From positions 25,638,101 to 25,702,100 of the forward strand of contig NC_092677.1 of the NCBI RefSeq assembly GCF_964355755.1: DNA of 64,000 nucleotides, read 5' to 3'. Positions 37,201-43,200 of the stretch are shown piece by piece; the stretch's first letter is position 1, and every line of letters begins with the position of its first letter. Under the pieces are notes generated by a model. It did not search any database, was not told the DNA's origin, and saw only the letters and a list, made by a program, of their open reading frames with translations. The position numbers were made by a program, and so were the translations under genes. The stretch comes from Antedon mediterranea. Taxonomy: Eukaryota; Echinodermata; Crinoidea; Comatulida; Antedonidae.

Positions 37201-40200
37201 ATTCATTTCAATATATTTGTACCTTCAATCAGGGTTCTCTATATTTATGGGGGCTACTTGTAAATGGTATTTGTTATACTGAGGCGTAACTAGACTTAAC
37301 TTCTTAACATTCAACAGGTAGCTTTTCACTCATATAAAAATCATTCATTTCGTCAGAAAGAAAATGAGTAAGCATCCATCGTACAACGTTGAAAAACACT
37401 TTTAAATAATAAAAATAAACTTTTGGCAAATTGGTAAATTTAACAAGGTAAATTACATGGCATGTAGTTTGGAATTTATTGGATTTGAAAGCATTCGCCA
37501 TTTTGAGAAGAATGTTGTCCTCTTTGCCAAATTGGCGAATGTCTTTTGGTTTCTCTACTCTTCTTCTTCTATAACCCCATAAGGTTTATCAATATTGCTC
37601 AGTGGCCGTATTCACCAATCACACTTAAGTAAAATATTTTCACTTAACTCAAAATATTAAGTATTTCACTTAACTCAATAAATATTAGGTATTTCACTTA
37701 ACTCAATAAATATTTAAGTATTTCCCTTAAATTGTATTCACTTAGATAGGAAATTTTCTTAAGGGTAAGTGTTTCCCTTGGCCTAAGTGTGAATGGTGAA
37801 TACGGCCACTGGTAATTATGTTGAATATAGTATACATTGTGGGTTAAACTACTATACTATGGTAACAATACAATGTTCACATCGGTCAATCAACTTATAC
37901 ATAATAAAACGTTATTAAATTCCATTAAGAACAATTTAACAAGAAAGAGACAATACAGGATATATTTGTTATAAACATCATTTGAAATAGCTAGATTTAC
38001 TCACATCCATTGACTCTAACTAAAGCATATCAGTAAATCAAGAAAACGTGGAAAACATTCTGTGTTTCCATGGAAATAAACGAGATCACAGGATATATGT
38101 TTATATAAACAAAACATTCACATTATGTCTTTTGAAGATGTCAAGTAGAATAGCACGTGTTTAACGGCTTTGATTGTATAATATAATTTAATTTACTGTT
38201 CAATATTGATTCCTCCCCCACTTATTTTCATTAATCAAAGAAGATGATGAATATTCATGAGTTTGTTCGCTCACCTGTGAATTTACAAAGGTTGCCGAGG
38301 GTGTTGAATTTACAAAGGTTATTGAAGTTAACATCAAAGTAATTAAAAATGTCACTGTCATGGCGGTACCATGAGGTAATAGATATTTGCCGAGGGCGTT
38401 GAGTTTACGAAGGCTATTGAAGTTAACATCAAAATAATTTAAAATGTCACTGTCATGGCGGTACCATGTAGTACCATCATCGGTACCATAAGGTAATAGA
38501 TATTTGCCGAGGGTGTTGAATTTACAAAGGTTATTGAAGTTAACATCAAAGTAATTAAAAATGTCACTGTCATGGCGGTACCATGAGGTAATAGATATTT
38601 GCCAAGGGCGTTGAGTTTACGAAGGCTATTGAAGTTAACATCAAAATAATTTAAAATGTCACTGTCATGGCGGTACCATGTAGTACCATCATCGGTACCA
38701 TAAGGTAATAGATATTTGCCGAGGGTGTTGAATTTACAAAGGTTATTGAAGTTAACATCAAAGTAATTAAAAATGTCACTGTCATGGCGGTACCATGAGG
38801 TAATAGATATTTACCGAGGGCGTTGAGTTTACGAAGGCTATTGAAGTTAACATCAAAATAATTAAAAATGTCACTGTCATGGCGGTACCATGTAGTACCA
38901 TCATCAGTACCATGAGGTAATAGATGGGTCATTCCATCTCAGATCACCCAATGAGTTAAACCCTACCTCTTCCAATTTTGATGAAATTTGGTATATGGGT
39001 GATTCATAGCAATTAAAGCGAAAATTTCAAATTTTAACTTTATCGTACCAACGGTTTTCGAGATATAGCAATTTAAATTTTCGGTTTTTACGCAAAAAAG
39101 GGCGCGTCCGCCACGTTTCAAAGAGCTGTATCTCGGGAACTATAGGTTCGATTTTAAAAACAAAGGCATTTTTGTAAAGGGGAGACCATAAGGAACCTAA
39201 ATATACTAATTGTGTGTGTTTTATGTTAATTTTAAGTTGAATAAAACTTTGACATATATTTTGACCTTGAAATTGACCCCGTGGAACACGCCCGATTTGT
39301 TGATGACCATCACGAAAAATGTAGCCCTACGTGTCAACTACAACATATAAAAAAATTGGAGGGGTTTTTTTTCTTTGTTTCCATGAAATTACAATTTGAA
39401 GTTGACATACCTCTTCCTTTTAGTGTATTTTTGGTGTCTGTCCATGCATTACTTCAATGTCAATTTGATGTAATCCAAAAATAATTTTATTTACAAACTA
39501 AATATCATTATAATGTTACAATTGTCTATGTCTGGCCTTTACTCCTTGTCATCTGGCCAATTCAAACAGTATTTAGAAATGTTGTGGCGATCATTTTGGG
39601 AAATACTGTAATTCCTAGTCGAAGAGGATTTTATAAACGGAGAGGCTATAATACAATGTACATTTGATTCAGGAATCCAACAACAGTCTTCTTTGGACAG
39701 CCAATAAAAGGTTTTCGCTGGCCCATGAGGATGCATAAATTTAATTTGATAATCCCCAAACTCTTCTGAGACATCCACAACCAAACCAATCCATGGGACA
39801 CCATCATAACTACAGCACACAAAATTCTGAAGTCTAATAATGGTGGGTTGTGTATCAGCAACAATTTAATTTTCATCACTGAAAGATTCTTGAATCACAA
39901 CCACATCCGGAGGGTTTATCTGGGTACTAAGTTTGTAGACCTGCATCTGTGCCAGAGAAACAGGAGCAAAGCGATGATATTGTAATGTACCCTTGATGGT
40001 CTGGGTGAGGTTGAATCTTGGCTTTATTTCTTTTTCCACAGTAGATACCTCATCTATTCCCACATGAAAAAAGTTGATGCCTGGAATGTCCATATGAGCG
40101 AGTCATATGGCCGAGCGGTTAAGGCAGGGGTGCCGTTTACCGTACCTAAAGAGCCAAGAACAACATCGGCAAGGGTTCGAGGCCGACTCGCTCCTAGTTC

Positions 40201-43200
40201 TGGTGGTGGAACAAGTCTTCTCGGATAAGGACTATAAACCGTAGGTCCAGTGTACACAGTTATAACCTGTGTGTACTTTAAAGAACCCAGTTCATTATTC
40301 GAAAAAGAGTAGGGGTTACCCCAGTGAACTGGTTCACACAATAGCCCCTGTATCAGGGGGATTACCACCTATCTGATAGGACACTGATTAGTTCACTATT
40401 GGTAATCCTTGGCCACATTGCCTAAAGACATAAAATAAAAATTAAAAATTACACAGTAGTCGAACATACTGAGAGATGTGAGAATATGACATTCAGTCAA
40501 ACGCTGTAAGCTTCTCTTAGTGACAAGCCTCTTAACTGTTCCACCTATGCCATCACATGCACTCTTGCCATGTGATGTAGCGAAAAAATTCCACTCGGCG
40601 TCTAAACCAAAATCTTCCTGGTGGTGGCAAAGGTTAATAAAGTTATATTTGTTTTTGCATTGGCTGCCACATCCATCTGTGAAATAATGAACTTTTTTCA
40701 TGGTTGGTAGTTTTGTTTTTAAATAGGGGATGACAACCTTTAAAAAGGCCTATACAGTTAACTGTTGTATGTTCTCTGCAATCACTTATTATGCATATGT
40801 TAATGTGCATAATAACATAGTAAGGACACTAAACTATGTGTCAAAATTGATTTGAAAAGTATGTGAGTTACCCAGTATTTCTCATATCAAAATATATCTA
40901 CTGTTTAAGTGGGCCTGATGAGAAAGCGTAACAATAAGACACCTTAACAGTTAGTGTTCACACTGTGTATAAAGTATAACAACACCAAAAATACACTAAA
41001 AGGAAGAGGTATGTCAACTTCAAATTGTAATTTCATGGAAACAAACAAAAAAACCCCTCCAATTTTTTTATATGTTGTAGTTGACACGTAGGGCTACATT
41101 TTTCGTGATAGTCACCAACAAATCGGGCGTGTTCCACGGGGTCAATTTCAAGGTCAAAATATATGTCAAAGTTTTATTCAACTTAAAATTAACATAAAAC
41201 ACACACAATTAGTATATTTAGGTTCCTTATGGTCTCCCCTTTACAAAAATACCTTTGTTTTTAAAATCGAACCTATAGTTCCCGAGATACAGCTCTTTGA
41301 AACGTGGCGGCCGCGCCTTTTTTTGCGTAAAAAACGAAAATTTAAATTGCGATATCTCAAAAACCGTTGGTCCGATAAAGTTAAAATTTGAAATTTTGGC
41401 TTTAATTGCTATGAATCACCCATATACCAAATTTCATCAAAATTGGAAGAGGTAGGGTTTAAAATTCCATTTTTTTTGGGTGAACTGAGATGGAATGACC
41501 CAGATATTTGATGAGGGCGTTGAGTTTACGAAGGCTATTGAAGATGACATTAAAATAATTTAAAATGTCACTGTCATAATTAGCGGTACCGCGTAGTAGC
41601 ATCATCGGTATCATAAGGTAATAGATATTTGCAGAGGAAGTTGAATTTACGAAGGCTATTGAAGTTAATATCAAAATAATTTAAAATGTCACTGTCATGG
41701 CGGTACCATGTAGTACCATCATCGGTATCATGAGATAATAGATATTTGCAGAGGGCGTTGAGTTTATGGAGGCTATTGAAGATGACATTAAAATAATTCT
41801 AAAATGTCATTGTCATGGTGGTACCAGATGTTAATGAATATTCATGAATGTGTTTACTCACCTGTGACCTACTGCTAAGGGCGTTGAACATATCAAAGAA
41901 TACAAAACATGTGAATGTCATGGTGGTATCACGCGGGGTAATTATATTATCTTGCATCTATAAAAGAAAAAAGGAAAAATATTAATTTTGTGGTTAATTA
42001 TACGGCGAAATTCATACTATTAGACCCCACAGCCATTCACAAGTCACTTACACTTACAGACAAATACTTTCATACAAAAATTTCCAACAAAAATCTCAAC
42101 AGAAATCATGTTTATTTAAAATTTAAAAAACACATAAGTAACGATTTCTCACCTCTCGCCAGAATACCCATACGGTTCCTATGACGATGATGATAGCCGA
42201 GATTAAGACATTGATGATAAGCGGACGCGTTATCATTGGTTCTTTCACGTTCCTAGGAGGCTGACGAATCACGTCCTTATCAACAGGCTCTACCCCAAGA
42301 CTACAAAATAATATTATTCGTATAAGTCGTTAAACTCTGTCTACACTATCAAAAAAGTGTGACAAAAAATGTGTGATATATGCACAAATATAGTAGTGAT
42401 GTGACATCATCATGTCCATTCCATATATGGGCACATCACATGTTTTGTCACATACAGTTTGATAGTGTAGACAAAGCTTTAGGAATTTTTAACACACAGA
42501 GGAAGTATAAAAAAATGGGGTTTTTTGGAGGGAAGGGGGGGGGGGAACAAACATTGATGAAATCTCCATTCCACCACACTTTTCAAACCCATAACCACAC
42601 AACTATTTTAATGACATGAAATTGTGTTTAGAGAAGCAACTACTTAACAGTAACTACAAAACTATTTTACAGCCTGTAGGTGATACTTAAGAATTGAACA
42701 TAAAATGGAGATAAAAATATAAAAAAGTGTAAAAGAACCCCATATAGCTAGCATCAACTCTTTCAAGTTTAATGACCAGAAGGTTGTAAAAAAACAGAGT
42801 ACAGTAATTTATGATCCATCGCATTTGCTTAGGTTATATTTTTATGATGCTTAGAAACAAGGATTTTCGGACTAGGCCCTTTTACACACACACACTAGCC
42901 ACAGACAAGAACTAAGCAATTATGCACACAAATATAACGGTTTAACGTCACATCCGAAGGACGAGGTACTGAAAATAATACCAACAGGATTGAAGAATTT
43001 GAGGCATACATGTAAAGCAGTAACTCAAAAATATATATTTGTTTTTATTCTTCAGTTTAGAGAGCTAAAAACTACATTTTGATATCTATTTTTTACTATT
43101 AAAGCTGTCTACACTATCAAATTTTATGTGACAAAAAATGTGATGTGGTCATATATGGACACGATGATGTTATATCACTACCATATTTGGGCATATCACT

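What the first reader, a model, noticed from the sequence alone, without database searches (positions are those of the whole stretch)
38278..41957. A coding exon (ATP2C1 exon 21, helix M8) amplified into an intronic tandem array
Read on the minus strand, the ~95-115-bp units downstream of exon 21 keep exon landmarks in order: (GATACC/GGTACC)(A/G)CCATGACA, ACAT, TTTGAT, TTCAA, CAACGCCCT. The array ends in CACAG|GTGAGCGAACA followed by CATGAATATTCAT, matching exon 21's own CACAG|GTGAGTAAACA and its downstream CATGAATATTCAT. So both edges are exon|donor junctions, as if an exon plus flanking intron was duplicated and the copies expanded between. Most units hold a TAA and no clear acceptor, so they are probably non-coding, but the terminal donor could be used as a decoy. 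Minisatellites born from a functional exon of a housekeeping gene are uncommon.
Basis: seen in the sequence. Interest (0 to 1): 0.72.

Follow-up and report, generated by a model that had tools for sequence, protein, structure and literature searches.

The report
Intron repeat born from exon end
A short piece of a calcium-pump gene, the end of one exon plus the start of the next intron, was copied and multiplied into nine decayed repeats inside the intron, later split by a jumping gene; it is a clear fossil of how intron repeats can be born, most likely without a function.

Summary
The core claim holds. On the minus strand, the last ~69 nt of an ATP2C1/SPCA1 exon (41957-41862) plus 36 nt of intron seeded nine head-to-tail units. 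Eight of nine beat all 1000 shuffles in two scoring schemes; U3 does not. The last unit keeps the exon|donor junction. In 354 Mb, the junction pattern occurs twice and the exon-landmark pattern nine times, all here. The copied residues match SPCA1 structures exactly, so the exon is the source.

Corrections: 2576 bp of the 3.7 kb is a recent DNA transposon splitting unit 3; the array is about 1.0 kb. No acceptor was copied, and the middle units lack the donor.

New: another exon of the gene (46374-46204) runs into a 26-bp array whose unit is its last 9 nt plus its donor; 8 of 12 copies keep GT. By its notation, human CBS's 31-bp VNTR has this layout. No array including exon bases was seen at 55 myosin segment ends.

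Most likely these are neutral duplications tolerated at exon 3' edges. Use of the decoy donors is untested.

The parts
41862..41957 (-). ATP2C1/SPCA1 coding exon (32 aa), the source; the clearly copied part is 41930-41862, its left border uncertain by up to about 18 nt
   Evidence: 23 aa [23 protein letters not shown] identical to SPCA1 chains in the PDB
41826..41861 (-). Proximal intron, 36 nt, included in the original duplication; native donor CAG|GTGAGT
41708..41825 (-). Unit U1 (118 nt), best scoring of U1-U8 in both schemes
   Evidence: scores 38 and 24, 0 of 1000 shuffles reach them
41591..41707 (-). Unit U2 (117 nt)
41502..41590 (-). Unit U3, first part; ends in ATCT (41505-41502), the target duplication
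   Evidence: this unit does not exceed shuffles
38926..41501 (.). 2576-bp DNA transposon inserted in U3; long inverted ends (arms of 33, 416 and 88 nt); interrupted reading frames inside; no Pfam match
   Evidence: 40 full-length matches to one arm in the genome, this one included, two others 100% identical
38890..38925 (-). Unit U3, second part, with the second ATCT (38925-38922)
38371..38889 (-). Units U4-U8, alternating 95 and 117 nt; with U9 they form three copies of a 212-bp dimer (98% matches)
38240..38370 (-). Unit U9, terminal copy with exon|donor junction CACAG|GTGAGC (GT at 38274-38273) and the intron stretch CATGAATATTCAT
   Evidence: the junction pattern was found twice in 354 Mb
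46204..46374 (-). Second ATP2C1 exon whose 3' end GTGCTATAG|GTACTG runs into an array
45930..46212 (-). 26-bp x 10.8 array; unit = last 9 exon nt + 17 intron nt beginning with the donor
45552..45617 (-). Detached 2.5 copies of the same 26-bp unit, beyond a dispersed ~310-bp element (about 45931-45622)

Best explanation
This is a small intronic minisatellite born in place from the 3' edge of a conserved coding exon. Step 1 (shown by homology): a segment of about 105 bp, some 69 nt of exon plus 36 nt of intron with the 5' splice site, was duplicated head to tail, leaving an exon|donor copy at each edge. Step 2 (inferred): a middle unit lost the donor, gained about 20 nt inside, and was multiplied; the youngest growth copied a 212-bp dimer (U4-U9, about 98% alike; shown). 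Step 3 (shown): a young DNA transposon then inserted into U3. Because the duplication took no acceptor, the copies cannot be spliced as exons of their own. The native exon, still joined to its own acceptor and donor, is most likely the only part used, and the array is a neutral passenger in the intron. The same process at exon 46374-46204 gave a 26-bp array with the donor site in each unit. Exon 3' edges tolerate this because, from general knowledge of splicing, only a few intronic bases there are essential.
For: Eight of 9 units exceed all shuffles; terminal copy E=2e-7. Genome-wide the junction pattern (34 nt, up to 3 mismatches) is found twice and the exon-landmark pattern (25 nt, up to 2) nine times, all at this locus, with 0 control hits. 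The unit query matches only here (5 matches). The exon's copied residues are identical to SPCA1 chains in the PDB while units change or stop them, so the exon is the source. Transposon. Neutral tolerance: of 57 donors, 7 have a tandem array within 50 nt downstream; of 75 acceptor-side starts, 0 have one within 50 nt upstream.
Against: U3 alone does not exceed shuffles, and with strict blastn scores most units are no better than background. The inner steps are weak: the internal 19-nt duplication (shuffles reaching it: U1 1025 of 2000, U2 328, U4 18, U5 15) and the intron-derived tail of the middle units (579-849 of 2000) do not stand out, or only partly. In one search those tails resemble both the copied intron joined to the U1 start (3 to 230 of 2000) and the exon before 41930 (131 to 232 of 2000), so their source and the left border of the duplication are open. 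No relatives' genomes and no RNA could be examined, so age and absence of splicing use are inferred. The terminal donor scores 8.58 against 9.74 for the native one and 4.15-11.51 for 16 others, so it could be used in principle.
Confidence: 0.8

Rival explanations
1. The array is an unrelated or dispersed repeat that landed next to the exon; the shared landmarks are chance.
For: Tandem arrays cover 13% of this gene's span, unit similarity is about 64% over a 122-column lenient alignment, strict-score unit hits are near background, and one unit does not exceed shuffles.
Against: Neither landmark pattern was found elsewhere in 354 Mb; the unit query hits only this locus; the terminal copy extends through the exon|donor junction into intron; the matches are on the exon's strand and next to it.
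Confidence: 0.04
2. Remains of tandem duplicated, once functional (mutually exclusive) exons that decayed.
For: By the reading the exon starts and ends between codons, so a full duplicate could be spliced in frame; tandem exon duplication is abundant (abstract of PMC9013439).
Against: No unit hit reaches back beyond 41948 although the query began at 41990, upstream of the acceptor; unit lengths 95, 118, 121 and 131 are not multiples of three, and U1, U2, U6 and U8 have a stop in the exon frame.
Confidence: 0.05
3. The arrays act in splicing: repeated 5' splice sites or exon-like units bind U1 or splicing factors and tune how the pump's transcript is spliced or retained.
For: Donors persist at both edges of this array and in 8 of 12 copies of the 26-bp array, with scores inside the gene's range. 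A minisatellite is reported over-represented near alternative splicing regions in C. elegans (abstract of PMC4039745).
Against: The middle units of the exon-21 array lack the donor; 4 of 12 copies in the other array have GA for GT, and using the next copy there adds an in-frame stop. Array cover in the first 50 nt after ATP2C1 donors is 0.140 against 0.134 for the gene span, although it rises to 0.22-0.28 at 51-200 nt, where the two arrays in question contribute.
Confidence: 0.06

Closest known systems
Human CBS 31-bp VNTR, c.1444_1467+7(16_21) (PMC2630376, passages seen)
   Same: Tandem unit that spans an exon 3' end and its 5' splice site (by its notation 24 exonic + 7 intronic nt), so the donor is repeated; same layout as the 26-bp array at 46212-45930.
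   Different: In the exon-21 array only the first and last copies keep the donor, the units are ~100 nt and much diverged, and a transposon splits it. Copy-number variation is unknown here.
Tandem exon duplication / mutually exclusive exons (PMC9013439, abstract)
   Same: Head-to-tail copies derived from a coding exon inside the same gene.
   Different: Copies are partial, without acceptor, four of nine with stops; no sign of use as exons.
Intron gain by tandem duplication across a splice boundary (PMC4974935, abstract)
   Same: A tandem duplication crossing an exon-intron boundary.
   Different: Here the donor side is duplicated and no new intron is evident; the exon joins its neighbours in frame without the copies.

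Membership tests
Exon|donor-spanning minisatellite (CBS type) | Head-to-tail array contiguous with an exon's 3' end | tested here: met
   the 26-bp array starts inside the exon; the first exon-21 unit starts 36 nt after the exon, the copied stretch itself ending there
Exon|donor-spanning minisatellite (CBS type) | Every unit includes exon end plus donor | tested here: inconclusive
   26-bp array: the 12 copies found include the junction, 8 keep GT. Exon-21 array: only U9 of 9 units keeps the junction
Exon|donor-spanning minisatellite (CBS type) | Copy number varies between individuals and affects splicing or activity | not testable with these tools
   one assembly, no reads or RNA
Tandem duplicated (mutually exclusive) exons | Complete exon copies with acceptor and donor and open frame | tested here: not met
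   unit hits begin inside the exon, none before 41948; stops in U1, U2, U6, U8
Dispersed satellite or transposon-borne repeat | Similar units at other loci | tested here: not met
   matches only at this locus (exon-21 array). For the 26-bp array one 43-bp piece lies on C11 beside part of a dispersed element
DNA transposon with long terminal inverted repeats (38926-41501) | Inverted ends, target-site duplication, many copies | tested here: met
   the target duplication was seen at this copy only; a transposase family could not be named (no Pfam match)

The most novel reading that the evidence does not exclude
Two exons of one ion-pump gene carry repeated copies of their own exon|5'-splice-site junction. 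If the copies compete for the spliceosome, array length would set how much transcript is spliced correctly, giving a copy-number-tunable, locus-built splice-site decoy system rather than neutral debris.
Probability: 0.05. Interest if true: 0.65.

Novelty: new member of a known kind. Interest (0 to 1): 0.36.

Why it matters
It is an unusually readable record of how an intronic minisatellite starts: source exon, duplicated edge, altered middle units, later dimer growth and a transposon strike all survive at one place. It also gives two natural cases, in one gene, of duplicated 5' splice sites beside the real one, useful for testing how the spliceosome keeps to the correct donor.

Tried and rejected
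Exon-spanning arrays at donors as a general habit of this genome: not supported. In six myosin genes 55 tblastn segment ends gave no array including exon bases, against 2 of 18 ATP2C1 donors scanned. The value for 2 of 18 against 0 of 55 is 0.058; the methods differ (junction alignment against tandem-repeat finder near segment ends), only 38 of the 55 ends got a donor call, and the comparison was made after seeing the cases. In one search two other donors (56445, 49421) gave weaker junction-crossing matches, reached by 5 and 4 of 200 shuffles, which I do not count. Acceptor sides are free of arrays within 50 nt (0 of 75), as expected from constraint.

Internal 19-nt duplication and descent of the middle units' tails: suggestive by eye, not settled, so not claimed.

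Second array as an inserted mobile repeat: the ~310-bp element between its two parts is dispersed (41 matches listed; 40 of 855 candidates scored), and a C11 copy carries 43 bp of array, but 10 of 11 pattern hits are here, so the element probably struck the array and carried a piece away.

Searches took loci of minus-strand matches as if read on the gene's strand and are superseded; one search used a 110-aa query and was superseded. In one search one donor string of 19 was not found. In one search one ATP2C1 donor was entered as 61975 where the sequence printed there puts the last exon base near 61980; it stays within 50 nt of its array either way.

Paper searches: searches found no paper with all terms; the listings (20 of 183 shown; 15 of 47; 3 of 3) showed no title on an exon-born intronic minisatellite. 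Subscription papers are mostly not held, so this is no claim that none is in print.
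Full report
What is there. The exon at 41957-41862 encodes 32 residues, of which [23 protein letters not shown] is identical to 'Calcium-transporting ATPase type 2C member 1' chains in the PDB (that these are human is recalled). It is the 19th segment, or the 20th if a segment with stops is two exons, so 'exon 21' is approximate. The next exon found starts at about 34949, so the intron is about 6.9 kb.

The array. After removal of an insertion (below), the intron next to the exon holds nine head-to-tail units of 118, 117, 121, 95, 117, 95, 117, 95 and 131 nt (1006 nt), from 41825 to about 38240. 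Each begins with GGTACC(A/G)C(C/T), matching the exon's GATACCACC at 41930. Against a 105-nt segment formed by the last 69 nt of the exon and 36 nt of intron (one nt either way), eight of nine units score above all 1000 dinucleotide shuffles in two scoring schemes; U3 does not (102 and 24 of 1000 reach it). Of 2000 pieces from elsewhere in the window at most one reaches any of the eight. Reverse complements score lower than the units in every case. In a window-wide blastn the terminal unit reaches E=2e-7 (lenient) and 4e-7 (strict). The other units reach 7.5e-5 to 0.011 with lenient scores, above the best unrelated hit (0.029), but only 0.003-0.4 with strict scores, where unrelated hits reach 0.009.

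Uniqueness. A 219-bp piece of the array matches nothing found in the 354-Mb assembly except this array (5 matches). A 34-nt pattern covering the exon|donor junction and intron, written to fit both edges and allowed 3 mismatches, is found twice, at the native exon and at U9. A 25-nt pattern for the unit start, written to fit exon and units and allowed 2 mismatches, is found nine times, at the exon and eight units; reversed control patterns give none. The patterns match here by construction; the result is that nothing else in the genome was found to match. The tool warns that a missing match does not prove absence.

Direction. The exon is conserved to the residue over the copied part; units alter it (GTTMTMTF-stop, GTAMTVTF and so on) and four of nine have a stop there in the exon frame. 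The exon is therefore the source. No unit hit reaches back beyond 41948, though the query began 33 nt upstream of the exon, so the acceptor was not copied and the units could not be spliced in as exons.

Growth. U5 and U7 are identical over their first 97 nt, U9 is 97% like them, and U4, U6 and U8 are 97-99% alike; the tandem-repeat finder sees a 212-bp dimer in three copies at 98% matches. So the U4-U9 part grew recently as a dimer. The middle units are about 20 nt longer than the exon core and lack the donor. By eye they show an internal repeat (TTCAATAGCCTTCGTAAA / TTCAACGCCCTCGGCAAA), which stands out from shuffles weakly in U4 and U5 (18 and 15 of 2000) and not in U1 and U2 (1025 and 328). 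Their tail (AATATCTATTACC...GGTACC) resembles both the copied intron joined to U1 (3 to 230 of 2000 shuffles) and the exon just before 41930 (131 to 232 of 2000). I leave that step, and the exact left border of the duplication, open.

The insertion. 41501-38926 is a 2576-bp element with ATCT on both sides and inverted arms of 33, 416 and 88 nt at 91%, 98% and 93% complementarity. One arm (483 bp) has 40 full-length matches in the genome, this one included, of 181 candidates (40 scored); two others are 100% identical to it. Its reading frames are interrupted and three stretches of it match no Pfam model.

A second case. The exon at 46374-46204 ends GTGCTATAG|GTACTG and runs straight into a 26-bp array (45930-46212, 10.8 copies, 96% matches) whose unit is GTGCTATAG|GTACTCTATCTAAAAAT. 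Of 12 copies, including two beyond a dispersed ~310-bp element, 8 keep GT and 4 have GA. With a small donor matrix built from 16 other donors of this gene the copies score 4.85, the native site 6.72 and the 16 others 4.15-11.51 (each left out in turn); the exon-21 native donor scores 9.74 and its terminal copy 8.58. Use of the next donor in the 26-bp array would add an in-frame stop (translation). Of 18 ATP2C1 donors scanned against their introns, these two have copies that include exon bases and that none of 200 shuffles reaches; two others gave weaker junction-crossing matches (5 and 4 of 200), and a third strong one (34805) is only an intronic 18-bp repeat.

Is it a habit of the genome? In six myosin genes, 55 tblastn segment ends gave no array including exon bases; two short two-copy repeats start about 7 nt inside introns. 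Tandem arrays lie within 50 nt after 7 of 57 donors (5 of 19 in ATP2C1, 2 of 38 in myosins) and within 50 nt before 0 of 75 acceptor-side starts. Within ATP2C1 the cover in the first 50 nt after donors (0.140) equals that of the gene span (0.134); it is higher at 51-200 nt (0.22-0.28), where the two arrays in question contribute. The simple reading is that arrays arise anywhere in introns, are weeded out near acceptors, and are tolerated up to and across exon 3' edges. This is a small sample, with exon edges estimated from tblastn ends.

Mechanism and function. Best supported: local duplication at an exon 3' edge, later expansion, no acceptor, hence no new exon; the native donor is used and the array is neutral. 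Homology, confinement to the locus, dimer growth and the insertion are shown; the middle steps and neutrality are inferred. Splicing use of the decoy donors cannot be tested without RNA.

Known parallels. Human CBS has a 31-bp VNTR named c.1444_1467+7(16_21), that is, a unit spanning exon end and donor (passages of PMC2630376; the reading of the notation is mine); a reference title quoted there links it to reduced CBS activity. Tandem exon duplication (PMC9013439, abstract) and intron gain by duplication over a splice boundary (PMC4974935, abstract) are related processes, but complete exon copies or a new intron are not seen here. Hence: a new member of a known kind, well preserved, with modest surprise.

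Noticed in passing
46374-45552: A second exon of the same gene continues into a 26-bp array made of its last 9 nt and its donor; 8 of 12 copies keep GT. Described in the report as a parallel case.
   Followed up: yes
L014 (G000:C11:1284400-1284442) with window 45931-45622: A dispersed ~310-bp element (40 of 855 candidates scored) splits the 26-bp array; a piece of this element on C11 has 43 bp of the ATP2C1 array attached, as if carried along.
   Followed up: partly
G000:C3:19.6-25.1 Mb (L033-L039, L041, L042, L044-L047): 19 matches to the same myosin-head stretch (profile positions about 342-408) are spread over about 5.5 Mb of one contig, with look-alike flanks in the 13 fetched: probably a large local expansion of myosin genes.
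   Followed up: no
40190-40085: Inside the transposon, between interrupted reading frames, lies a stretch that by eye resembles a tRNA gene (A and B box like); ARAGORN reports no tRNA in the window.
   Followed up: no
61351-61944 and 54037-54207: Two further arrays (18 bp x 32.7; 19 bp x 8.9) begin about 35-45 nt after ATP2C1 donors without including exon bases.
   Followed up: partly
20876-27894: A large higher-order repeat: 98-bp units in blocks repeated at about 475 bp and again at about 2.2 kb.
   Followed up: no
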